A stretch of DNA of 12,793 nucleotides. It comes from Candidatus Beckwithbacteria bacterium CG23_combo_of_CG06-09_8_20_14_all_47_9 (GTDB taxonomy: Bacteria; Patescibacteriota; Microgenomatia; UBA1400; CG1-02-47-37). The translations under genes were made by a program, and so were the position numbers. The first letter of the stretch is position 1, and every line of letters starts with the position of its first letter. Shown one piece after another: positions 2,117-11,079 of this stretch. The stretch lies in the NCBI GenBank assembly GCA_002772455.1, contig PCSQ01000018.1, forward strand, positions 1-12,793. Reading direction: 5' to 3'. The notes beneath the pieces are model-generated. The model searched no databases. It was not told the DNA's origin and worked only from the letters and a program-made list of their open reading frames with translations.

Positions 2117-2914
2117 ATGGATAATGTCAATAGAATATTGGCGGTAGATAAGCCGGTGGGGTGGACCAGCCATGACGTGGTGTCCAAAATCAGGGGGGAG
2201 CTCGGGAGGAAAACCAAAGTGGGCCATGGTGGCACCCTGGATCCGTTTGCCACCGGGTTGTTGCTGATTTTAATCGGTAAAGCGGTGAAGCGATTTGACG
2301 AAATCAGAACTTGGGAGAAAGAATACATGATGACGGTCAAGCTGGGGGAGGCGACCGATACCGGCGACCCGACCGGTAAAATCGTAACTACTTCAAGTTC
2401 GGAACCTGAAGTGTCGCAAAATGAAGTTGAGAGAGTTTTGGCAAGTTTTGTTCCCGGTTATGAACAGACCGTGCCGATTTATTCGGCGGTCAAGATCGGC
2501 GGACGGCGCGCTTATAAATTGGCCCGCGCCGGGAAAGAGTTTATTCAGCCAAAGCGCTTCGTCAAAATCAAAGAAATTGAGCTAATCAACCTGCAGGGTC
2601 CAACCCTGCAGGTTAAAGTGGTTTGCGGTTCGGGGACGTATATGCGGCAGTTGGCGGTGGATATTGGGGAAAAGCTGGGCTGGCCGGCGCATTGCGCCGC
2701 TTTGCGGCGAACGCGGTTGGGCACCTACAAGGTTAAACCTTGTAGATCGAGTTTAAGGCTCGGGCTCATGGAGGAACAGATAAAAGCGGCGGAAATATTT
2801 TTTGGCTGGACGCTTTTGATGGCCGCGGTTAAATTATCAACCAGTTGTTCGTCTTTAAACGAGAGTTTTCCAATAATCAGGTGCATTAGGGGGGCTTTGG
2901 GTTCGGATTTGTAG
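2117..2914 (+). CDS. truB: tRNA pseudouridine(55) synthase with antisense-encoded C-terminal tail
   Basis: TruB makes the pseudouridine of the tRNA T-loop. Seen: DKPVGWTSHDVV (11-22), the catalytic motif GHGGTLDPFATGLLL with Asp42, PIYSAVKIGGRRAYKLAR (the active-site Tyr block), and GSGTYMRQLAVDIG near the C-terminus, then ALRRTRLGTYKV. Family members this short usually stop soon after that motif, with no PUA domain. Here the frame continues about 60 more residues (from Tyr204 to 265), antisense to the 3' end of rplA, with a composition unlike TruB, so the native stop seems lost at the palindrome 2725-2745. Two more palindromes lie in its variable loops. The gene is inverted within a ribosomal-protein cluster and probably has its own leaderless promoter. 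Function is firm; the tail is suspect. Confidence 0.93.
   Translation: MDNVNRILAVDKPVGWTSHDVVSKIRGELGRKTKVGHGGTLDPFATGLLLILIGKAVKRFDEIRTWEKEYMMTVKLGEATDTGDPTGKIVTTSSSEPEVSQNEVERVLASFVPGYEQTVPIYSAVKIGGRRAYKLARAGKEFIQPKRFVKIKEIELINLQGPTLQVKVVCGSGTYMRQLAVDIGEKLGWPAHCAALRRTRLGTYKVKPCRSSLRLGLMEEQIKAAEIFFGWTLLMAAVKLSTSCSSLNESFPIIRCIRGALGSDL
2391..2411. repeat. Palindromic element copy in truB (variable loop)
   Basis: Arms CTTCAAGTTC and GAACCTGAAG flank a central G, with one mismatch; adding a flanking pair gives 11-bp arms at 2390-2412. It matches the 21-nt family seen elsewhere in the window (core TTCAAG-TCGGA-CTTGAA) and is read as Ser/Glu/Pro-rich residues in a TruB loop that is normally short and variable. 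Confidence 0.6.
2588..2614. repeat. Palindromic element copy in truB, perfect 11-bp stem
   Basis: AACCTGCAGGG (2588-2598) and CCCTGCAGGTT (2604-2614) are exact reverse complements with the 5-nt loop TCCAA. The 21-nt core 2591-2611 encodes LQGPTLQ between two predicted strands just before the conserved VVCGSGTYMR. It is the GC-richer member of the palindrome family. There is no T-run after it, so it is not a terminator. Confidence 0.75.
2725..2745. repeat. Palindromic element copy at the truB/rplA junction
   Basis: CTACAAGGTT (2725-2734), central A, AACCTTGTAG (2736-2745): a perfect 10-bp palindrome. On the minus strand it encodes the last residues of L1 (LQGLTL) and its TAG stop; on the plus strand it is read as YKVKPCR in truB, which has no stop there. 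Neither side has a T-run, so it does not look like a rho-independent terminator. Confidence 0.75.
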
Positions 2915-3495
2915 TGGATTAGGCCGCCGCAAAACTTTTTGGCGGCCGTTTCCGGGTCGGCGGCAATGGTGTTGTTTTTGGGGTTGGGCATCAGGCCCTT
3001 GGGGCCTAAAATCTTGGCATACTTGGCCAGTTTGGGCATCATCATTGGTGCAGCGATTAAAATGTCAAAATCGATTTTATTATCGTTGAGTTTAACCAAA
3101 GTTTTCTCGGAAGCGATTTCGACCTTGACGGTTTTACCGGTGCCGTGGGGGAGCTGGAGTTCGCCGCCGACTTTATCCACGAGCAGGTTCAGATGGAGTT
3201 CAACCGACGGGTCAAATTTGACCCGGGAAATTGCCTTTAATAATTTAACCGCTTCATCAATAGGGTAGGTCTCGTTGGTTAATTTGGCCTTGGCTTCCAA
3301 ATAGCGTTTCGAGCGGCCGTGCCTAATCCGCTTATGAATTTCAGCCTTCAAGGTCGGACCTTGAATTGGCTTAGGCTCGGGTTCTTGAGGTTTTTTAACC
3401 TTGAAACTAATTTTTTGGCTCCTAACGCCGGTGGCCTTGAGTTCGGCGGTTTCGCCTTGGGACAGATCGACGAGGGCGACTTTTTTCTTGCCCAT
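2725..3495 (-). CDS. rplA: 50S ribosomal protein L1 with N-terminal extension
   Basis: 256 residues. The L1 core begins near GRSKRY (60-65). It includes LPHGTGK (125-131) and the hallmark ILGPKGLMPNPK (162-173), and ends FICSSMSPSLKLDLQGLTL. L1 forms the mobile E-site stalk of the ribosome and in many bacteria represses its own operon. The first ~58 residues (Lys/Pro/Glu-rich, including IQGPTLK at 44-50 encoded by a palindrome) precede the usual start and are an extension. ATG 3495 overlaps the rplK stop as TAATG, so translation is coupled. The C-terminal end is also encoded by a palindrome copy. The gene overlaps truB by 190 nt tail to tail, unusual for a ribosomal gene. Confidence 0.96.
   Translation of the reverse strand: MGKKKVALVDLSQGETAELKATGVRSQKISFKVKKPQEPEPKPIQGPTLKAEIHKRIRHGRSKRYLEAKAKLTNETYPIDEAVKLLKAISRVKFDPSVELHLNLLVDKVGGELQLPHGTGKTVKVEIASEKTLVKLNDNKIDFDILIAAPMMMPKLAKYAKILGPKGLMPNPKNNTIAADPETAAKKFCGGLIHYKSEPKAPLMHLIIGKLSFKDEQLVDNLTAAIKSVQPKNISAAFICSSMSPSLKLDLQGLTL
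3208..3225. repeat. 18-bp perfect palindrome in rplA
   Basis: CGGGTCAAA and TTTGACCCG abut with no loop. It encodes part of RVKFDPSV, a well-conserved stretch in L1, so it may simply be coding constraint. It does not fit the 21-nt palindrome family. Confidence 0.35.
3346..3366. repeat. Palindromic element copy in the rplA N-terminal extension
   Basis: TTCAAGGTC (3347-3355), central G, GACCTTGAA (3357-3365): a perfect 9-bp stem and the clearest copy of the family core CAAGGTCGGACCTTG. On the coding (minus) strand it reads IQGPTLK within the non-conserved extension of L1, nearly the same peptide as the truB copy (LQGPTLQ). Confidence 0.7.
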
Positions 3496-3914
3496 TAGGC
3501 TACCTTAATTCCCATTGACCGGGCCGTGCCGGCGATGATTTTCTTGGCCGTTTCCAGGTCATTGGCGTTAAGGTCTTCCATTTTTTCCCGGGCGATTTTA
3601 GCCAGTTGGGCCTGGGTAATCGTGGCGGCGGTTTCCCGGCCTGGGGTTTTGGATCCGTGTTCGATTTTTAACTCTTTTTTAATGAATTCGGATACCGGCG
3701 GTTTCTTCAGTATAAAAGTAAACGAGCGGTCTTCAAAAATGGTGATGACCGCGGGGATAACGCCCTGCATTGCCTTGGTTTTTTCGTTGTACTGCTTGCA
3801 AAACTCCATGATGGCAATGCCATGCTGGCCCAAAGCGGGGCCGATGGGAGGAGCGGGATTAGCCTTGCCGGCGGGAAGATTTAATTTGAGGATAACTTTT
3901 ACTTTTTTTGCCAT
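3495..3914 (-). CDS. rplK: 50S ribosomal protein L11
   Basis: 139 residues from ATG 3914. [20 protein letters not shown] is the typical L11 start, followed by [11 protein letters not shown] (22-32), and it ends [12 protein letters not shown]11 binds the GTPase-associated centre of 23S rRNA with L10 and the L12 stalk. An upstream GTG at 3929 would add five residues, but the promoter -10 lies inside that stretch and the family starts at MAKK, so ATG 3914 is preferred. There is no Shine-Dalgarno; instead TATACT ends 5 nt before the ATG. The stop overlaps the rplA start (TAATG). Confidence 0.97.
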
Positions 3915-3919
3915 ATGGG

Positions 3920-3949
3920 AGTATATCACAACCTAATCTTCAGCGGCAA
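3920..3949 (-). promoter_or_regulatory. Predicted leaderless promoter of rplK-rplA
   Basis: TTGCCG (3949-3944), an 18-nt spacer, then TGATATACT with -10 TATACT at 3925-3920 (extended TG). ATG 3914 follows after 5 nt. It uses the same -10 octamer and the same spacing as the HTH gene promoter. It would let rplKA be transcribed apart from secE-nusG. Confidence 0.6.
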
Positions 3950-4130
3950 CCCCGACCTTTTTGGCAATTTTATTGAACATATTGAGAATTCGGTCATATT
4001 GGTGCCAATGAAAGACTTCTTTTTCGCGATGCTTGGCTATTTCGATCATGACCGGATCAATTTGTTGCTGCCAACATTGTTTTAATTTTTTTAGATCTGA
4101 TTTGGTGGTAAAGCCATTGGTGCCGGTCAT
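3933..4130 (-). CDS. Small protein of unknown function between nusG and rplK
   Basis: A 65-residue frame, basic and mostly helical, with no signal peptide or membrane segment. One visible feature is KSDLKKLKQCWQQQIDPVM; another is the aromatic/His cluster VFHWHQYDRIL near residues 39-49. I do not recognise a family. Support for it being real: it fills the whole gap between nusG (7 nt away) and rplK in a tightly packed cluster, shares their strand, and has TATAAT exactly 6 nt before its ATG with TGGACT 18 nt further up. An insertion of a gene between nusG and rplK is uncommon. It could be a ribosome or transcription-associated accessory protein, but nothing in the sequence proves that. Confidence 0.6.
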   Translation of the reverse strand: MTGTNGFTTKSDLKKLKQCWQQQIDPVMIEIAKHREKEVFHWHQYDRILNMFNKIAKKVGVAAED

Positions 4131-4136
4131 GATTTC

Positions 4137-4166
4137 ATTATATTTTTTGTACTTGCAGGAAGTCCA
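4137..4166 (-). promoter_or_regulatory. Predicted leaderless promoter inside the nusG 3' end
   Basis: TGGACT (4166-4161), an 18-nt spacer, then TATAAT (4142-4137), which overlaps the nusG stop codon. ATG 4130 follows after 6 nt. The spacing matches the rplK, HTH and kinase-like gene promoters. Confidence 0.5.
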
Positions 4167-4725
4167 GTTCTACCGGGGTTTCGCGGCCGAAGATCGAGAC
4201 CAAGACTTTAACTTTGCCTTTGGCGTCGTCGATCGAGTCGACCGAACCCAAGAAATCGGCAAACGGGCCTTCGATGATTTTGACCGCTTCGCCGATGCTA
4301 AAGCTGGCTTTGTATTTGGGCGCTTCCATGGTCATGAATTTCATGATGTTATCGATCTCTGATTTAGGCAGCGGTGTGGGTTTGTTGCCGACGCCGACAA
4401 AGCCGGTAACGCCTTGGGTGGTGCGCACCGCCAACCAGGAATCGTCGGTCAAAATTAGTTTAACCAGCATGTAACCGGGAAAAAGTTTTTCTTTGATCTG
4501 GTGTTTTTCGCCTTTTTTGATCTGGATTTTATTTTGGGTGGGGACGAGTATTTCCAAGATATAATCAGTGAGATTCATGGATTTGGCCCGTTGGTCGAGG
4601 GCGGCGGCAACTTTGTGTTCGTGGCCGGAATAAGTGTGGACCACGTACCAATTGCCCGGTTTTTTGGGCTCGGGGTTAATGATCAAATGATTTTCCTGGT
4701 TTTGATCAACCGTAATGTCGTCCAT
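4138..4725 (-). CDS. nusG: Transcription termination/antitermination factor NusG
   Basis: 195 residues. After a ~24-residue polar N-terminal stretch comes the NGN domain (NWYVVHTYSGHEHKVAAALD, about 25-44; LFPGYMLVKL, about 81-90; VRTTQGVTGFVG, about 100-111). The KOW domain follows (SIGEAVKIIEGPFADFLG, about 143-160) and the protein ends VELDFLQVQKI. NusG binds RNA polymerase and links it to Rho or the leading ribosome. It begins 3 nt after the secE stop, the standard secE-nusG pairing. No strong Shine-Dalgarno is visible, so coupling to secE translation is likely. Confidence 0.97.
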   Translation of the reverse strand: MDDITVDQNQENHLIINPEPKKPGNWYVVHTYSGHEHKVAAALDQRAKSMNLTDYILEILVPTQNKIQIKKGEKHQIKEKLFPGYMLVKLILTDDSWLAVRTTQGVTGFVGVGNKPTPLPKSEIDNIMKFMTMEAPKYKASFSIGEAVKIIEGPFADFLGSVDSIDDAKGKVKVLVSIFGRETPVELDFLQVQKI

Positions 4726-4728
4726 ATA

Positions 4729-4914
4729 TTAGATGATTAAAGCAAGTAATTTAGTAAAGATAAAGTCCAGCCCGCCCATAAGCAGTCCGGCAATCACCGA
4801 AACGACGATCACTATCAGTGTCAGGCGGACCACTTGTTCTTTGGCCGGCCAGACGACTTTCTTGAGTTCGCTGATCGCTTCGTGCAAGAAACGGATTGGT
4901 TTGGATTGTAACAT
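4729..4914 (-). CDS. secE: Preprotein translocase subunit SecE
   Basis: 61 residues, the short single-span form. The amphipathic segment FLHEAISELKKVVWPAKEQV (9-28) carries the hallmark ELKKVVWP, followed by one hydrophobic transmembrane helix (about 31-55, LTLIVIVVSVIAGLLMGG onward). SecE clamps SecY in the inner-membrane translocon. It is the first gene of the minus-strand cluster, divergent from galU across 44 nt. Confidence 0.95.
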   Translation of the reverse strand: MLQSKPIRFLHEAISELKKVVWPAKEQVVRLTLIVIVVSVIAGLLMGGLDFIFTKLLALII

Positions 4915-4924
4915 GGCAAAGTCT

Positions 4925-4933
4925 ATTATGCCA
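4925..4933 (-). promoter_or_regulatory. Extended -10 of the secE-nusG promoter
   Basis: TGGCATAAT on the minus strand (4933-4925), 10 nt before ATG 4914, giving at most a 3-5 nt leader. There is no good -35 (TTTTAA at 18 nt). It lies within the 44-nt divergent region shared with galU. Confidence 0.45.
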
Positions 4934-4940
4934 CAAATTG

Positions 4941-4949
4941 TGTTATACT
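4941..4949 (+). promoter_or_regulatory. Extended -10 of the galU operon promoter
   Basis: TGTTATACT ends 9 nt before ATG 4959 (12 nt before the second ATG at 4962). No -35 match is evident, consistent with an extended -10 promoter. The transcript would carry only a few nucleotides before the start and there is no Shine-Dalgarno. Confidence 0.55.
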
Positions 4950-4958
4950 TAAAACTCC

Positions 4959-5861
4959 ATGATGGCGAAGATTACCAAAGCGGTTATTCCCGCGGCCGGA
5001 TTCGGCACCAGATTTTTACCCCAAACTAAAGCCATTCCCAAAGAAATGCTGCCGATTGTGGACAAGCCGGTAATCCAGTATGTGGTTGAAGAGCTGGTCA
5101 ATGCCGGCATTAAAGACATTATTTTAGTGACCGGTTACCACAAGCGGACGATCGAAGACCATTTTGACTCTCCCAGTAAAGACCTGGTGGAAAACCTGGA
5201 ACTGGGCGGGGCAAAAAAACAGCCGCTATTGGAAGCGGTCAAAGACATTTCCGAAATGGCCAACTTTATTTACGTGCGCCAAAAAGGGCCTTACGGTAAC
5301 GGCACGCCGCTTTTGAACGTCAAAGACTTAATCGGCAACGAACCGTTTATTTACACCTGGAGCGATGACTTTATTGTGGCCAAACCCTCGCGGTTTAAAC
5401 AGCTGATCAGCGTTTACGAGGAATTCGGCTGCAGCGTTTTGGCCGGCATCCGGGCCAGGCGCGACGAAGATTATAATCGTTACGGCTTTGCCGGCGGGAA
5501 AGAAATTAAGCCGGGATTGATGGCCATCAACCAGTTGATCGAAAAGCCGGGAAAAGCTAAAGCGCCGTCGGACTTGGCCACAGTTTCCGGGTTTTTATTC
5601 ACCCCGGAAATTTTCGGCTATTTGGAAAAATCATTAACCCAGCTTAAGCCCGGGCAGGAATTGTGGTACAACGACGCCATTAAATTAATGCTGGCTGACG
5701 GGAAGAAAGTCATGGTCAGGGAAATCGCCAACGGCAAGTATTACGACACCGGCAATAAATTGGATTATTTAAAAACCGTGGTCGAATTTGCCCTGAAACG
5801 AGAAGATATCGGCGCGGAGTTTAAACGGTATTTACAGCATGAACTTAAACTCACTGATTGA
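4959..5861 (+). CDS. galU: UTP--glucose-1-phosphate uridylyltransferase
   Basis: 300 residues. The nucleotidyltransferase signature AVIPAAGFGTRFLPQTKAIP (8-27) is followed by KEMLPIVDKPVIQYVVEE. Further on are ELWYND and the end block NGKYYDTGNKLDYLKTVVEFAL typical of GalU. It would make UDP-glucose from UTP and glucose-1-phosphate. The loop usually reading GLGHAV is here PYGNGTPLLNV, and the metal-site region reads TWSDDF rather than a GDD, so substrate details may differ (a related sugar-1-phosphate is possible). It starts MMAK at 4959; ATG 4962 is equally plausible. It is the first gene of the plus-strand operon and overlaps deoC by 23 nt. Confidence 0.92.
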   Translation: MMAKITKAVIPAAGFGTRFLPQTKAIPKEMLPIVDKPVIQYVVEELVNAGIKDIILVTGYHKRTIEDHFDSPSKDLVENLELGGAKKQPLLEAVKDISEMANFIYVRQKGPYGNGTPLLNVKDLIGNEPFIYTWSDDFIVAKPSRFKQLISVYEEFGCSVLAGIRARRDEDYNRYGFAGGKEIKPGLMAINQLIEKPGKAKAPSDLATVSGFLFTPEIFGYLEKSLTQLKPGQELWYNDAIKLMLADGKKVMVREIANGKYYDTGNKLDYLKTVVEFALKREDIGAEFKRYLQHELKLTD

Positions 5862-6444
5862 TCATACGTTGTTAAAACCCACGACAACCCAAACGGAAAT
5901 TTTGCAGTTGTGTGACGAAACCAAAAAATATAAGTTTTGGAGCGTGTGCGTTAATCCGGTCTGGGTAAAATTAGCCAAAGAGCAGGGGGTGAAGGTTTGC
6001 AGTGTGATTGGTTTTCCGCTGGGGGCAAATACTTTAGCGGTTAAAGTAGCCGAAGCCCGGCAGGCAATTAAAGACGGAGCCGAAGAATTAGATGTGGTGA
6101 TTACTAAACCGGCAGAAATAAAAAAAACCGTCGCGGCGGTTTTGCCTGTTGCCAATAATAAAATAATCAAAGTAATTATTGAAACCTGCTATTTAACTAA
6201 TCAGGAAAAAATTCTGGCGGCTAAATTAGTGAAACAGAGTGGGGCGGATTTTGTCAAGACGAGTACGGGATTCGGACCCGGCGGAGCCACGGTTGCCGAC
6301 GTTAAATTATTACGAAAAGTGGTTGGTCCGGATTTCGGCGTTAAAGCCTCCGGCGGGATTAAAACCAAAGAGCAGGCGATGGACTTAGTTGCCGCCGGCG
6401 CCAATCGCTTGGGGACCAGTAGCGGCGTTGATATATGCCGGTAG
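5839..6444 (+). CDS. deoC: Deoxyribose-phosphate aldolase
   Basis: 201 residues, a class I aldolase with a TIM barrel. IDHTLLKPTTT (7-17), SVCVNPVWV (35-43), CSVIGFPLGANT (54-65), EELDVVI with Asp85, DFVKTSTGFGPGGAT with Schiff-base Lys140, and VKASGGIK with Lys169 are all in place. It splits 2-deoxyribose-5-phosphate into glyceraldehyde-3-phosphate and acetaldehyde, a common carbon-salvage route in reduced CPR genomes. It begins inside galU and ends 10 nt inside the next gene. No Shine-Dalgarno is visible, so translation probably depends on coupling. The C-terminus (GTSSGVDICR) is slightly short but complete. Confidence 0.96.
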   Translation: MNLNSLIDHTLLKPTTTQTEILQLCDETKKYKFWSVCVNPVWVKLAKEQGVKVCSVIGFPLGANTLAVKVAEARQAIKDGAEELDVVITKPAEIKKTVAAVLPVANNKIIKVIIETCYLTNQEKILAAKLVKQSGADFVKTSTGFGPGGATVADVKLLRKVVGPDFGVKASGGIKTKEQAMDLVAAGANRLGTSSGVDICR

Positions 6445-6833
6445 CTAATTTGTTCGGCACTTCGGGAATAAGGGGCTTGATCGGTAAAGAGATTGACGAA
6501 AAATTTAGTTTTAAAATAGGCTTGGCTTTGGGAAAGTATCTGGGGAAGGGTCGGGCCCTAGTCGCCCGCGATCCAAGGCCGGGGGCTAAAGAAATAACCC
6601 AAGCGTTAATTAAGGGACTGCAAAAAGCCGGGGCTGAAGTTGACGATGCCGGGATTTTAGCCACGCCGGAGCTGACCTGGTATCAGGTTAAGCGCGGTTA
6701 TGATTTAGGCGTTTCGGTGACCGGTTCGCATTTACCCTGGAACATGATCGGAATTATTCCCACTTTGGCTGACGGAGCCGGTATTTCCGGCGAAGTTGGC
6801 CGCCAAATAACAAGGATCTATGAATCATTCTGA
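6435..6833 (+). CDS. Phosphohexomutase, N-terminal part (domain 1, active-site Ser)
   Basis: 132 residues covering domain 1 of the alpha-D-phosphohexomutase family (GlmM/ManB/Pgm). It begins NLFGTSGIRGLIG (5-17) and carries the phosphoserine loop VSVTGSHLPWN with Ser98 (family form: TASHNP). The frame ends at TGA 6831-6833, where the family normally continues into domain 2. The rest is encoded in the +1 frame from 6820. Both halves have intact motifs, so this is either a split enzyme with two chains, a recoded gene or a sequencing frameshift. The frame of the second half is closed by TAA 6808-6810 upstream, so any fusion must happen between 6811 and 6833. Substrate is uncertain: glucosamine-, glucose-, mannose- or possibly pentose-phosphate. 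Confidence 0.85.
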   Translation: MPVANLFGTSGIRGLIGKEIDEKFSFKIGLALGKYLGKGRALVARDPRPGAKEITQALIKGLQKAGAEVDDAGILATPELTWYQVKRGYDLGVSVTGSHLPWNMIGIIPTLADGAGISGEVGRQITRIYESF

Positions 6834-7671
6834 CTATATCCGGGTTTTATTAACAACCGTTGATGCGGCGGCGATTAAACGGCGGCATTTTAAGATTCTT
6901 TTCGATCCGGTTAACGGTTCGGCGATTGAAGCCGGCCGGCAGTTATTTTCTAAGCTGGGCCGGCTGGTAATGATTAATGACTGCCTCGGCCAGAGGCCGG
7001 CTCGCGCGTCCGAACCGCGGCGGGAAACTTTAATTGAAACGGCTAAACAGGTAGTTAAAAATCACTGCGATTTGGGCATGGCCACCGACGTCGATGCCGA
7101 TCGGGTCTTGTTTATCGACGAAACCGGGGTGGTTTTGTCGGAAGATTTGACGGCGGTGATTTTAGCTCACGGCAAAAAAACTTTAGTCACGCCGGTTAAT
7201 TCATCCGGGATATTTACCGCCGAAGCGAAAAAATGGGGGGGCAAAGTGATTGAATGCCCGGTCGGCCCGCCGGAAATTATTCAGGCGATTAAAACCCACC
7301 GGGCCGACTTTGCCTACGAAGAATCGGGGAAGTATTTCTTCCCGCCGGAATTTTTGTGGGCCGATGGTTTGTTGGCGGGAGTCAAAATACTTGAAGCGAT
7401 GACAGCCAGGCAGCAGATTTTAAGCCGGATCCGCAAGGATTATCCGGAATTTTTTCAGGTGAAACTGGCAGTTGACTGTTCGTGGTCAAAGATGCCGTCA
7501 AAGTGGGTTGGGTTTGGTGAAAAGAGGATTTTTGGCGATAGTTTTATGTTTATCCGGGCATCGGGCACCGAGCCGCTGATCCGGATTTTCGGCGATTCAC
7601 CCAGTAAAAAACAGGCCCAAGAATTGGCCGAAGCCGGCAAAAAAGAAGTCAAGGCAGAATGCGGCCAGTAG
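6820..7671 (+). CDS. Phosphohexomutase, C-terminal part (domains 2-4)
   Basis: 283 residues holding the remaining catalytic elements of the split phosphohexomutase. The metal-binding loop is MATDVDADRV (Asp90, Asp92, Asp94), the sugar-binding loop is YEESGKYFF (domain 3, about 166-174), and the phosphate-binding loop is IRASGTEPLIRI (about 245-256). ATG 6820 has AAGGA only 3 nt upstream (6812-6816), a short but usable Shine-Dalgarno, which favours independent initiation of a second chain. The overlap with the first half is 14 nt. With GalU and the GH13 phosphorylase it could interconvert glucose-1- and glucose-6-phosphate; as GlmM it would feed peptidoglycan precursors. The 3' end overlaps nfo by 13 nt. 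Confidence 0.87.
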   Translation: MNHSDYIRVLLTTVDAAAIKRRHFKILFDPVNGSAIEAGRQLFSKLGRLVMINDCLGQRPARASEPRRETLIETAKQVVKNHCDLGMATDVDADRVLFIDETGVVLSEDLTAVILAHGKKTLVTPVNSSGIFTAEAKKWGGKVIECPVGPPEIIQAIKTHRADFAYEESGKYFFPPEFLWADGLLAGVKILEAMTARQQILSRIRKDYPEFFQVKLAVDCSWSKMPSKWVGFGEKRIFGDSFMFIRASGTEPLIRIFGDSPSKKQAQELAEAGKKEVKAECGQ

Positions 7672-8486
7672 GGGCGCATTTATCGATTGCCGGCGGGCTG
7701 GAAAAGGCGGCGGAGCGGCTGGTAAAAATGGGCGGCAACTGTCTGCAGGTATTTTCTGCCAGTCCGAAAAGCTGGGAATTGCCGACGATTAATGGCCGGT
7801 TGTCTGCGGCTGTCCGGCCGGCGTTTATCCACGCTAAATATCTGATCAATTTAGCGTCGGACAAGCCAGATTTGTTGGCAAAATCAATCGCCAGCCTAAA
7901 ATATGACTTGCAAGTTGCCGATTTGATTGGGGCCAAAGGCGTCATTGTCCATCTTGGCAGTCATTTGGGCCGGGGATTTAAGGCTGTTTTTCAGCAGGTA
8001 ACCGAATCAATTGAGATCATACTAAAGAATAGTAATACCAACTCATTACTAATCATTGAAAATAGTGCCGGACAGCAGGGTAAATTATGTTCTCTAATTA
8101 CTGAAATTAAGTTGATATTTGATGCCGTTAATAGTAGTCGGTTGGCCTGGTGCCTGGATACTTGTCACGCCTTCAATGCCGGCTATTCGATCGGGTCGGC
8201 TTCGGGAAATGGCTCGATACAGAATGATATAGTTAACGAGACTGCAAGGACGGACCTTGTAGGCCGGTTAGCCTGTCTGCATGTTAACGATTCCCGCGAT
8301 GATTTTGCCTCGGGCCATGACCGCCACGCCAATCTTGGCGAAGGTAAAATCGGTTTAAAAAATCTAGCCGAATATGTCAATCACCCCCAGTTAAAACATC
8401 TACCCCTGATCATCGAAACTCCCGGGTTTGATAAATCCGGACCGGATAAAAAGAACTTGGATATTTTAAAATCGCTATGCGTTTAA
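7659..8486 (+). CDS. nfo: Endonuclease IV (AP endonuclease)
   Basis: 275 residues, close to the family's usual 280. GAHLSIAGGLEKA (5-17), CLQVFSASPKSW, VIVHLGSHLG, IIENSAGQ, the zinc-ligand block WCLDTCHAFNAGY, LHVNDSRDDF followed by HDRHANLGEGKIG, and IIETPG near the end together give the full tri-zinc site. It cleaves DNA 5' to abasic sites in base-excision repair. Before LHVNDS lies ARTDLVGRL, encoded by a copy of the palindrome family (8242-8262). The start overlaps the mutase gene by 13 nt and the end overlaps the hydrolase by 10 nt. Being in a sugar operon probably reflects genome packing, not function. Confidence 0.96.
   Translation: MRPVGAHLSIAGGLEKAAERLVKMGGNCLQVFSASPKSWELPTINGRLSAAVRPAFIHAKYLINLASDKPDLLAKSIASLKYDLQVADLIGAKGVIVHLGSHLGRGFKAVFQQVTESIEIILKNSNTNSLLIIENSAGQQGKLCSLITEIKLIFDAVNSSRLAWCLDTCHAFNAGYSIGSASGNGSIQNDIVNETARTDLVGRLACLHVNDSRDDFASGHDRHANLGEGKIGLKNLAEYVNHPQLKHLPLIIETPGFDKSGPDKKNLDILKSLCV
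8242..8262. repeat. Palindromic element copy in nfo
   Basis: The core CAAGGACGGACCTTG (8245-8259) differs by one base from the rplA copy and has one stem mismatch. Flanking CT-G and T-AG extend it to 21 nt. It is read in a different frame from the rplA and truB (2591) copies, giving ARTDLV in a loop before LHVNDS. Confidence 0.65.
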
Positions 8487-9427
8487 TTGCCGGGTTGACA
8501 GTGGGGTTAATTTTAGGTTTTTCAGTTTGGTATTTTTGGCCGAAAGAGAAAAAAGTATTTTTATCACCCGAGGGGAAGTGGACTTTTGAAAGTAAACCAT
8601 TCGAGAAGTATAGTTTTCCTAAACTTCGGGAGCGGGTTTTTATTCCGGACGGCATTTGGGTGGAAGGTAGCATGTTTTACTATTGGGTTGAGGGCAAAAA
8701 AGTCAGCGGCCAAATCTTAAAACCAGTAGGTTCGGTTCCTACGAATGGCTGGCCGGTGATCATCATGCTTCGGGGCTATGTTGACCGGGAAATATATCAG
8801 CCCGGAGTGGGGACGCGCCGGGCGGCCGAAATGTTTAGCCAAAACGGCTATCTGACTCTGGCACCGGACTTTTTGGGTTACGGCGGGTCTGATCAGTCTT
8901 TCCCTAATAATTTGGAAGACCGGTTTTTCCACCCCATCGAAGTTTTACAGTTAATCGCCTCGTTAAAAAATCTTGATATGGCTAATCCGAATCAAGTGGC
9001 GCTTTGGGGGCATTCCAACGGTGGTCAGATTGCCCTATCGGTTTTGGAAATTTCCGGCAAAGATTTCCCGACCAGTTTGTGGGCGCCGGTGTCTAAACCG
9101 TTTCCTTACTCGATTTTGTATTACACCGACGAGGCTGATGATAATGGTAAAGCCTTGCGCCGGGTGGTGGCCGGGTTTGAGGCGCTTTACGACAGCGACG
9201 AATTTTCGATTCAGAATTATTATGATTGGATCAGCGCCCCGGTACAGGTCCACCAGGGAACCGCCGACGAGGCCGTGCCGCTCAAATGGTCGCAGGCGCT
9301 GGAGAAATCCTTAAAAGATAAAGATAAAAATGTTAAGTTATATATTTATCCCGGTGCCGACCACAACTTGCTCGGCGGCTGGGAGGCGGCGGTAGAAAGG
9401 AGCCTCGAATGGTTCAAGCAAAAATAA
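8477..9427 (+). CDS. Membrane-anchored alpha/beta hydrolase (S9/dienelactone hydrolase-like)
   Basis: 316 residues. It begins with a hydrophobic helix (MRLIAGLTVGLILGFSVWYF) that should act as an uncleaved anchor or signal, placing the enzyme outside the membrane. The hydrolase core has an oxyanion region (PVIIMLRGY, 93-101), nucleophile elbow WGHSNGG with Ser180, acid HQGTADEAVPL with Asp264, and PGADHNLLGG with His296. The catalytic triad is therefore complete. Such proteins act as acyl-ester hydrolases or peptidases; the substrate cannot be read from sequence. No Shine-Dalgarno is visible, and its start lies in the last 10 nt of nfo. Loop residues KPVGSVPTN come from a decayed palindrome. 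Its 3' end holds the Shine-Dalgarno for the next gene. Confidence 0.87.
   Translation: MRLIAGLTVGLILGFSVWYFWPKEKKVFLSPEGKWTFESKPFEKYSFPKLRERVFIPDGIWVEGSMFYYWVEGKKVSGQILKPVGSVPTNGWPVIIMLRGYVDREIYQPGVGTRRAAEMFSQNGYLTLAPDFLGYGGSDQSFPNNLEDRFFHPIEVLQLIASLKNLDMANPNQVALWGHSNGGQIALSVLEISGKDFPTSLWAPVSKPFPYSILYYTDEADDNGKALRRVVAGFEALYDSDEFSIQNYYDWISAPVQVHQGTADEAVPLKWSQALEKSLKDKDKNVKLYIYPGADHNLLGGWEAAVERSLEWFKQK
8726..8742. repeat. Decayed palindromic element in the hydrolase gene
   Basis: GTAGG (8726-8730) and CCTAC (8738-8742) flank TTCGGTT. The TTCGG centre and spacing fit the family, with two mismatched inner pairs. It encodes VGSVPT in a surface loop of the hydrolase where homologues vary. Confidence 0.4.
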
Positions 9428-11079
9428 AACATAAATTGCTGGAGTTATTTTCTGAAGACGGCGAACGGCTTTATCGTTATTGGTGCCAACGGTTGGCGGC
9501 GACCGGGGCGATCGGCAATGTGACTGACCGCTTGCCGGAAAAGTTGAATACTATGGTGGTCTATCCGGGTACTTTTGGCGATTTTCATGGTTTAATCAGG
9601 GTTTTACCGCGATTGAGAGATTTAGGCGTTAATCAAATCCATATTTTGCCTTTTTATGAGGCTACCGGCGACGATGGTTTTGAAGTAGTTAACCGTACTT
9701 TGGCAGTGCCGTTAAGAGTTGCCGATGAGTGGGGTGGAATTTCGATGTTTAAAAAGTTGGTAAAACGGGCAAAAAACTTGAAGATGAGTTTAATGGCCGA
9801 TGCGGTGTTGAATCACATTTCCAGCCATTCGCCGGTTTTGAAACAGGTTGGCTTGGAAAAACTGACTCGGAGTTGGCTAAAAAATAAGATACCGTTTAAA
9901 TTTTTGCGTTTGGAATCCGGCGCGGCCGGCGGGGTTGAGGCAATTTACCGTTTTAACGGCCGAAAGGTGAGACGGATAGTGATTTTCCCAGAGCAGGCTG
10001 ATCCTAAACAGCCTCATTTGGTGTTAATTGGTCGGAGGCTGGTGTGGCATACGTTTTATCCCAACCAGCTGGACCTTGACCTGAATCAACCGGAAGCGTT
10101 CAAACTGGCAATGAATACAATTCTACAGATTGCCGATTTACTTGAAGGCCGGGGAACAATCCGTTTGGATGCGATTCCGTTTGTGGGAAAAGTTATCAAT
10201 CGGGAAAAGTTTGAGTTTATTTCCGGAACCAGAGAAAAACCATTGATTGTTTTGTTGAGGTTGATGTTGGCAGTTAAGGCGCCGCAAATGACCATGATTG
10301 CCGAGGCCGCCCGGCCGTTAACTAAAATGAGTCAATATGTTAAGCTCGTCGGCGGCAATTATGATTTTTTAAGTTTTCCCCGCTTCATTGCGGCAATCGC
10401 CTCGGAAAATGCCGCCCGTTTAATTGACGCAGTTAATCTTTCAATTCAAACTATAGGTTTGAATGTATTAGAGAATTTAGCCTTTACGGTTCAGACACAT
10501 GATGACATTCCTCTAGCCGAGCTTGGAAGTTTTGACTTAAGCCGTGAAGTTTGGGTGAGCTTAAAAAAGCTGGGAGCGTTGCCTTTTGGGACCAAAGAGG
10601 CGAACAGCATACCCAAGGGGGCGGTTATCCGGCTGATGGATGTTTGCGGCGGCAATCCGGATAAACTGGCGGTAGCATTTTTTCTGGCTGCCATGATGCC
10701 CCACCGGCGATTATTGTGGCTTTATGGAACCGAAGTTGGGCTATGCGGCTCGCCGGAAAATTATCAAGCCGATTCGGTTTTGGCCAAAGCCGTCGGAAGA
10801 AAATCGGACGCGCGCAGTTTCATCCGCCAGCCGTTGGCAGTAAAAGATTATTTAAAAAAACTGGATGGGGCGGCGGCTGGGAAGATTGGCGCCATTCTCA
10901 AGTTAAGGTTAAACCAACTGCCAGATAAATTCGATTCGTGGTCAGCCGCAGTGGTTGGCAGCGTGGTCAAGATTGCTTTTTCCGGCAGGAAAAATAAACA
11001 AAAAATTTCCGGGCAAGCCATGGTAAACTTACATCTGCCTTACAACTATGAAATCAAAAATAATAATTTTGGGAGTTAG
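9409..11079 (+). CDS. GH13 sucrose-phosphorylase-like enzyme (GH13 subfamily 18 type)
   Basis: 556 residues with no signal peptide, so cytoplasmic. The (beta/alpha)8 barrel shows VYPGTFGDFHGL (51-62), IHILPFYEATGDDGFEVVN (77-95) and MADAVLNHISSHSP (129-142), then WHTFYPNQLDLDLNQPE. The catalytic trio is IRLDAIPFVGK (nucleophile Asp254), MTMIAEAARP (acid/base Glu299) and VQTHDDIPL (Asp365). HILPF and QLDLDL are features I associate with sucrose phosphorylase and glucosylglycerate phosphorylase, not with amylases. The reaction would release glucose-1-phosphate, which suits the operon's mutase and GalU. The exact acceptor is unknown. AAAGGAG at 9396-9402, 6 nt before ATG 9409, is the best Shine-Dalgarno in the operon. 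It overlaps coaBC by 32 nt. Confidence 0.85.
   Translation: MVQAKIKHKLLELFSEDGERLYRYWCQRLAATGAIGNVTDRLPEKLNTMVVYPGTFGDFHGLIRVLPRLRDLGVNQIHILPFYEATGDDGFEVVNRTLAVPLRVADEWGGISMFKKLVKRAKNLKMSLMADAVLNHISSHSPVLKQVGLEKLTRSWLKNKIPFKFLRLESGAAGGVEAIYRFNGRKVRRIVIFPEQADPKQPHLVLIGRRLVWHTFYPNQLDLDLNQPEAFKLAMNTILQIADLLEGRGTIRLDAIPFVGKVINREKFEFISGTREKPLIVLLRLMLAVKAPQMTMIAEAARPLTKMSQYVKLVGGNYDFLSFPRFIAAIASENAARLIDAVNLSIQTIGLNVLENLAFTVQTHDDIPLAELGSFDLSREVWVSLKKLGALPFGTKEANSIPKGAVIRLMDVCGGNPDKLAVAFFLAAMMPHRRLLWLYGTEVGLCGSPENYQADSVLAKAVGRKSDARSFIRQPLAVKDYLKKLDGAAAGKIGAILKLRLNQLPDKFDSWSAAVVGSVVKIAFSGRKNKQKISGQAMVNLHLPYNYEIKNNNFGS

What the first reader, a model, noticed from the sequence alone, without database searches (positions are those of the whole stretch)
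2390..8742. A family of ~21-nt palindromes embedded in coding genes in several frames
Five positions (2391-2411, 2591-2611, 2725-2745, 3346-3366, 8242-8262) carry near-identical palindromes with core CAAGGTCGGACCTTG, plus a decayed copy at 8726-8742. Seen: stems of 9-11 bp with one or no loop base (five in one case), one shared consensus, and use in all three frames: LQGPTLQ, IQGPTLK and LQGLTL-stop in one, ARTDLV and SSSEPE in another, YKVKPCR in the third. All sit in variable loops, an N-terminal extension or a gene end. Known parallel: Rickettsia palindromic elements insert in frame into protein genes. Inference: this lineage has its own miniature protein-invading palindrome, perhaps mobilised or copied as a hairpin, or acting as a DNA-uptake or protein-binding mark.
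Basis: partly seen in the sequence, partly recalled or inferred. Interest (0 to 1): 0.78.

Follow-up and report, generated by a model that had tools for sequence, protein, structure and literature searches.

The report
Transposase-linked palindromes inside bacterial genes
Short DNA palindromes sit inside ordinary genes of a tiny uncultured bacterium, most of them match palindromes carried by its own transposase-like genes, and they seem to have overwritten gene sequence rather than lengthened it, which bears on how such repeats spread in bacteria.

Summary
The lineage is Candidatus Beckwithbacteria (Patescibacteria). The genome has 69 sites of the generic pattern against 0 of the reversed control. 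They fall into families, and each of seven REP-associated tyrosine transposase (RAYT) genes has its own, usually before the gene, at its stop codon, and inside the gene in up to two fixed linkers. In-gene copies matching the gene's own flank recur in 20 of 80 RAYT loci from public genomes, against 0-4 with shuffled flanks. Of 50 host-gene palindromes, 33 are exact cores of a RAYT palindrome of this genome.

They are not clean insertions: relatives without the palindrome differ by a median of 0 residues, never -7 (20 comparisons). Nine host sites persist between species while their sequence changes, in part in step with the RAYT loci. Best reading: a GTAG-less REP/RAYT system, by motifs of the RAYT class reported to lack REPs, whose palindromes are rewritten in place. 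The rewriting step is inferred.

The parts
2117..2914 (+). truB, tRNA pseudouridine-55 synthase, host of sites 1-3; the last 50-odd codons run antisense into rplA
   Evidence: TIGR00431 over cut-off; G001 TruB is 220 aa, this one 265 aa
2390..2412 (.). palindrome site 1, encodes TSSSEPEV; G001 has another family at the same codons, G003 none
2590..2612 (.). palindrome site 2, encodes LQGPTLQ; exact core of the C121 RAYT family; palindromic with changed sequence in G001 and G003
2725..2745 (.). palindrome site 3 at the overlapping ends of truB and rplA; gives rplA its TAG stop; +13 nt against G001
2725..3495 (-). rplA, ribosomal protein L1, host of sites 3 and 4
   Evidence: PF00687; TIGR01169 matched below its cut-off
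3346..3366 (.). palindrome site 4 in the N-terminal extension of L1, encodes IQGPTLK; linker differs in length and sequence in G001 and G003
7659..8486 (+). nfo, deoxyribonuclease IV, host of site 5
   Evidence: TIGR00587 over cut-off
8242..8262 (.). palindrome site 5, two mismatched pairs, encodes TARTDLVG

Best explanation
The palindromes are the cognate hairpins of a REP/RAYT system in Patescibacteria. Shown by sequence: each of seven paralogous Y1 (HuH) transposase-like genes has its own 21-23 nt palindrome family at fixed places (about -36, the stop codon, and up to two linkers inside the gene); most host-gene palindromes examined in this genome are exact core copies of one of these; syntenic RAYT loci of two sister species carry changed palindromes that largely agree within each locus; host sites persist between species while their sequence changes; and a palindrome does not lengthen the protein by seven residues. 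Inferred: the RAYT recognises the hairpin in single-stranded DNA, probably at the replication fork, and copies or converts palindromes onto hairpin-prone, partly matching sequence, so that 21-23 nt are overwritten rather than added; polymerase template switching within the hairpin keeps the arms perfect, flips the loop and extends stems into the flanks; selection keeps the sites where the 7-8 encoded residues are tolerated.
For: Seven Y1_Tnp genes, all over the Pfam cut-off, each with its own family. Whole-genome excess 69 against 0. Repeated hairpin family at 45 of 80 RAYT loci against 4 of 145 control windows; in-gene copies matching a flank in 20 of 80 against 0-4 in 20 flank shuffles. Host cores exact to own RAYT families 33 of 50, to those of G001 3 of 50, random palindromes of the pattern 22 of 2000. 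RAYT number predicts pattern density over 53 genomes (Spearman 0.63; 0.54 without the own family) but not the control (-0.03). Three RAYT pairs syntenic on both sides with switched palindromes. Nine shared host sites, all changed in sequence, one with an inverted loop. Constant length. Stem extension of 4 or more pairs in 9 of 107 sites against 1.09 expected. Best PDB match of the RAYT model is 4er8, REP transposase with a REP hairpin.
Against: 35 of 80 RAYT loci show no repeated hairpin family and 60 of 80 no matching in-gene copy. In G001 host palindromes do not prefer their own RAYT families (6 of 15 exact either way). C149b lacks the 5' and C-linker copies, the partial RAYT on G001 C38 has none, and the copies of locus C149a are mixed. 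No enzyme activity is shown; constant length and switching could also come from mutation and selection. Site 3 is +13 nt against G001.
Confidence: 0.65

Rival explanations
1. Binding sites evolved in place: palindromes are built and changed by ordinary mutation, kept because RAYT (or the cell) needs a hairpin there, and they follow the specificity of the RAYT by selection, without copying.
For: No net length change; symmetric arm changes; 12 of 20 outgroups keep the proline of TruB site 2.
Against: 33 of 50 host cores are exact including the unpaired loop; TruB site 1 changed its loop from GAG to CGG, a loop of other families of the genome; at L036/L268 the whole loop is inverted. Many simultaneous fitting mutations would be needed.
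Confidence: 0.2
2. Ordinary transposition of 21-23 nt REP units into genes, followed by deletions that restore length in flexible linkers.
For: Insertion is how intragenic REPs are described (PMC3733652 section 15); site 3 is +13 nt; Obg and RecJ relatives are 2-5 residues shorter; the Nfo alignment is ambiguous.
Against: Median length difference 0 and no case of -7 in 20 comparisons; TruB site 2 constant in 14 of 20 outgroups and shorter in none; CobA changed with no gap.
Confidence: 0.1
3. Hairpins acting in mRNA, bound by RAYT or a nuclease as a regulatory mark.
For: Most sites lie in open frames (51 of 63 in G000 stretches) and would fold in the message.
Against: The frame finder covers 97% of the sequence, so this is no enrichment; families follow RAYT genes, whose known relatives act on single-stranded DNA (PMC8266576 section 3); no Rfam match in the window.
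Confidence: 0.03
4. DNA-uptake marks, terminators or chance palindromes.
For: Palindromes without the arm pattern are only mildly in excess in the window (6 against 2.28 for at least 8/9 pairs), so some could be chance.
Against: 69 against 0 reversed control; family identity with RAYT loci; low density and several families per genome do not suit an uptake mark.
Confidence: 0.02

Closest known systems
REP/RAYT systems (REPtrons), e.g. E. coli, Stenotrophomonas maltophilia (PMC2817692, PMC8266576)
   Same: HuH Y1 transposase gene with its own palindrome family on both sides and copies in the genome; co-evolution of the two; short perfect hairpins with a 3-nt loop in S. maltophilia
   Different: No GTAG tag 5' of the hairpin; not mainly extragenic; copies inside the RAYT gene; RAYT motifs of another class
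TnpAY1 subclass 2.4 (RAYT group 4) with REPs inserted in the tnpA gene (PMC6006769 section 13)
   Same: In-frame REP copies inside the transposase gene itself
   Different: There the inserts lie mostly between HuH and Y and REPs carry GT[AG]G; here the copies lie before HuH and after Y, HuH-Y distance is 59-61, no tag
TnpAY1 subclass 2.1 (RAYT group 1, TIRYT) (PMC6006769 section 20)
   Same: Motifs NH[FY]H, FQ, YIHLNP, SS and HuH-Y distance near 60
   Different: No REP-like sequences were found there; a C-terminal helix-turn-helix domain is reported, none was found here in six proteins
Intragenic REPs and Rickettsia palindromic elements (PMC3733652 section 15; PMC2229807 passages)
   Same: Palindromes translated within housekeeping genes, truB and uvrB among them; different REPs at about one site of recB in two Xanthomonas species
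   Different: RPEs are 105-146 bp in-frame insertions; here 21-23 nt without net gain, and tied to RAYT genes
Template switching between inverted repeats; coding palindromes of Nematomorpha mitochondria (PMC8604942, PMC6649704, abstracts)
   Same: Perfect inverted repeats kept in coding DNA; arm homogenisation and spacer inversion
   Different: Neither abstract mentions a transposase or a dispersed palindrome family

Membership tests
REP/RAYT system | Y1 (HuH) transposase-like gene | tested here: met
   PF01797 over cut-off in 7 of 7; REP_Tyr_transpos matched but below its cut-off in 6 of 6; best PDB match 4er8
REP/RAYT system | Gene flanked on both sides by its own palindrome | tested here: met
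   5' copy in 11 of 13 visible, 3' copy in 13 of 14 RAYT genes of G000 and G001
REP/RAYT system | Cognate palindromes dispersed in the genome | tested here: met
   69 against 0; 33 of 50 host sites exact
REP/RAYT system | GT[AG]G (or CGTC) tetranucleotide at the 5' foot of the hairpin | tested here: not met
   214 arms: CTTC 103, CTGC 36, CTAC 31, TGAC 18, TGGA 14, no GTAG at the start; bases outside mostly AC, GC, AA. GTAG ends the 3' arm in the CTAC families
REP/RAYT system | Mostly extragenic | tested here: not met
   51 of 63 (G000 stretches) and 20 of 31 (part of G001) inside open frames; the frame finder covers 97%, so genes are not avoided but not preferred
REP/RAYT system | Transposase cuts its single-stranded palindrome | not testable with these tools
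   -
TnpAY1 subclass 2.1 | NH[YF]H, FQ, Y[IV]HLNP, SS motifs | tested here: met
   44 proteins: NH[FY]H 43, FQ 31 (YQ 7, FE 4, none 2), YIHLNP 18 and YIHRNP 13 (YIHKQA 8, others 5), SS 44; by motif only, no tree with reference members
TnpAY1 subclass 2.1 | C-terminal HTH extension | tested here: inconclusive
   No HTH domain in Pfam scan of six proteins
TnpAY1 subclass 2.4 | REPs inside tnpA between HuH and Y, W in the WQ motif | tested here: not met
   Copies before HuH and after Y; no WQ in 44 proteins
Rickettsia palindromic element | Net in-frame insertion | tested here: not met
   Median 0, never -7, in 20 comparisons; TruB site 2
DNA-uptake sequence | One dense motif per genome | tested here: not met
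   69 sites in 885 kb, seven RAYT-linked families

The most novel reading that the evidence does not exclude
RAYT proteins of Patescibacteria are sequence writers: they copy their own hairpin into single-stranded DNA and overwrite 21-23 nt of host genes without changing gene length, rewriting 7-8 residues of housekeeping proteins, and rewrite the marks in their own genes and in host genes together when their specificity drifts. This would be a transposase-derived, trans-acting gene-conversion system rather than a transposon.
Probability: 0.3. Interest if true: 0.88.

Novelty: new variant of a known kind. Interest (0 to 1): 0.7.

Why it matters
It would give cognate palindromes to a RAYT class in which none had been found (PMC6006769 section 20), extend the RAYT-palindrome link to Patescibacteria, and show that intragenic palindromes need not be insertions. 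How REPs spread is stated to be unknown (PMC8266576 section 3); sites shared between species with switched sequence make that question testable by comparing close strains.

Tried and rejected
Rejected: one lineage-specific palindrome; clean in-frame insertion; a DNA-uptake mark; known structured RNA (Rfam on the window: 0 matches); subclass 2.4 membership.

Against the reading, or left out of counts: G001 host palindromes do not prefer own RAYT families. 4 of 145 control windows had a repeated hairpin. E. coli K-12 rayT as control: no in-gene hairpin of this design. Of 8 RAYT loci whose record title names a non-Patescibacterial taxon (L061, L097, L100, L113, L118, L119, L121, L122), 2 had a repeated hairpin family, 0 a matching in-gene copy. 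The 20 gap comparisons are those with a spanning alignment of at least 40% identity and best stem of at most 7 of 9; dropped: GatA against G001 L208 (both directions) and Obg against G003 L227 as likely paralogues, TruB 2725 against G003 (through a stop), repeats of the same sites seen from G001; other sites had no hit, low identity or no spanning alignment. In one search the 'any palindrome' counts are inflated by N stretches and the shuffle was approximate; searches are relied on. G000 stretches were mostly chosen for a pattern match or a RAYT gene, so densities there are not representative. Solved-structure search by sequence: 0 matches. In-gene REPs in other systems, found late, lowered the novelty.

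Papers: PMC3733652 sections 15, 16 and passages; PMC6006769 sections 8, 11, 12, 13, 20 and passages; PMC8266576 section 3 and passages; PMC2817692, PMC12306157, PMC2229807 passages; PMC6649704, PMC8604942 abstract and outline. Absence from print rests on searches in an open-licence PubMed Central library.
Full report
Observation. The window carries five palindromes of one design, 9-bp arms of pattern NNNCARRKW and a 3-nt loop. Sites with at least 7/9 pairs and that pattern number 6, against a mean of 0.24 in 200 dinucleotide shuffles; the sixth (9594-9614) is weak. The two best database relatives of the associated gene are Candidatus Beckwithbacteria. Pairing continues one base further on each side at 80 of 107 sites, so the usual element is 23 nt.

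The source. The genome has seven Y1 transposase-like genes, all over the Pfam cut-off; NCBIfam REP_Tyr_transpos matches six of six scanned, below its cut-off. A model of the G001 member (mean pLDDT 90) has as best PDB match 4er8, the REP transposase with a REP hairpin (E 2.6e-6). Each gene has its own palindrome family. Over the 14 genes of G000 and G001 a copy sits 29-37 nt before the start in 11 of 13 visible, near nt 151 in 6 of 14, near nt 443-479 in 11 of 14 and at the stop codon in 13 of 14. The in-gene places are linkers: one before the HuH strand, in a low-confidence loop of the model, and one just after the helix with the conserved Tyr142. The design recurs in the phylum: 45 of 80 RAYT loci have a repeated hairpin family in or within 400 bp of the gene, against 4 of 145 control windows; 20 of 80 have an in-gene palindrome matching a flank, against 0-4 in 20 flank shuffles. 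E. coli rayT has none.

Host genes. In the held G000 stretches 33 of 50 palindromes outside RAYT loci are exact 15-nt cores of a RAYT-linked palindrome of the genome, 3 of 50 of one of G001; 22 of 2000 random palindromes of the pattern are exact. In G001 the test does not discriminate: 6 of 15 either way. Over 53 genomes the number of RAYT genes predicts pattern density: Spearman 0.63, or 0.54 without the own family, against -0.03 for the control. By best NCBIfam match the hosts include TruB, L1, Nfo, UvrB, Obg (two sites), GatA, TsaD, a thiamine diphosphokinase (two sites), a CobA-type adenosyltransferase, RadA and a ComEC-like protein; L1, GatA, CobA and ComEC score below the curated cut-off. 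Tgt, HolB and GatB carry, at their ends, copies that flank a RAYT.

Not insertions. In 20 comparisons of a palindrome site with a relative lacking a good palindrome there, the relative differed by -10 to +17 residues, median 0, never by -7 (dropped rows under Tried and rejected). TruB site 2 has the same length in 14 of 20 outgroup genomes, is longer in 6, shorter in none; 12 of 20 keep the proline; one (G023) has a stem of 8, A/T-rich, the rest at most 7. CobA of G001 has as many codons and no palindrome. Nfo is ambiguous: 11 relatives align without a gap at the palindrome, but this Nfo has 2-10 extra residues a little upstream. Site 3, at the overlapping ends of truB and rplA, is +13 nt against G001, and TruB there reads on into a tail (265 against 220 aa).

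Sites stay, sequences change. Nine host sites are palindromic at the aligned place in two or three species, and the sequence differs at all nine; two align with small gaps near the site. Inner arms change symmetrically at four (TruB site 2, a sortase-like gene, the ComEC-like gene, the C42 gene). At L036/L268 the arms are the same and the loop is inverted. TruB site 1 carries exactly the G001 C50 RAYT palindrome in G001 and another centre in G000. Three RAYT pairs are syntenic on both sides: C132b/C40 and C32/C42 differ between species at every position and agree within the locus but for orientation and one or two bases; C149a/C50 differ at three of four places, G001 having four identical copies and G000 a mixture. 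The ComEC-like site, on another contig, changed in the same way as the C149a/C50 in-gene copies. Stems run on into locus-specific flanks: 4 or more extra pairs at 9 of 107 sites against 1.09 expected, 10 at two, one of them in tsaD.

Mechanism. Shown: association, partly concerted change, persistence of sites, constant length. Known elsewhere: E. coli RAYT cuts and joins single-stranded REP hairpins at a CT dinucleotide, and how REPs spread is unknown (PMC8266576 section 3); template switching between inverted repeats homogenises arms and inverts spacers in coding DNA (PMC8604942 abstract). Inferred: RAYT-driven copying onto partly matching sequence, with template switching restoring symmetry. 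Rivals are in-place evolution under selection, and insertion followed by deletion.

What is known. Intragenic REPs, also in truB and uvrB, and different REPs at about one site of recB in two Xanthomonas species are described (PMC3733652 section 15); REPs inside the RAYT gene are described for subclass 2.4, mostly between HuH and Y and with GT[AG]G tags (PMC6006769 section 13). The present proteins carry motifs of subclass 2.1 (44 proteins, with exceptions), for which automatic and manual searches had found no REP-like sequences (PMC6006769 section 20); the automatic search required a GTAG or GTGG tag (passage), which these palindromes lack. In searches I found no report of RAYT palindromes in Patescibacteria, of tagless palindromes for this class, or of constant-length switching. 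Class membership rests on motifs; no tree with reference members was built. I rate it a new variant of a known kind.

Noticed in passing
window 6435-6833 and 6820-7671: A phosphoglucomutase/phosphomannomutase-like protein (my reading of the residues) appears split into two overlapping frames: a true split, a frameshift or an assembly error.
   Followed up: no
window 2752-2914: TruB runs about 50 codons beyond its usual end, antisense to rplA, compared with G001 (265 against 220 aa); the change lies at palindrome site 3.
   Followed up: partly
L024:1-1606 and L205:6500-8203: RAYT C132a and G001 C37 share downstream synteny but are not reciprocal best matches, as if the RAYT gene at one place had been replaced.
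   Followed up: no
L295:856-2178: This RecJ-like protein (my reading) shows further stretches like decayed palindrome peptides (RGLSVKGLSS, SSSHLEGE) besides its palindrome.
   Followed up: no
L028:767-807, L038:5994-6034: Two 20-bp stems in open frames whose outer 10 bp differ between the two sites; tsaD is the first host.
   Followed up: partly
L101, L104, L105, L116: RAYT loci with two or three copies of one hairpin family on the same side of the gene, as in BIME arrays.
   Followed up: no
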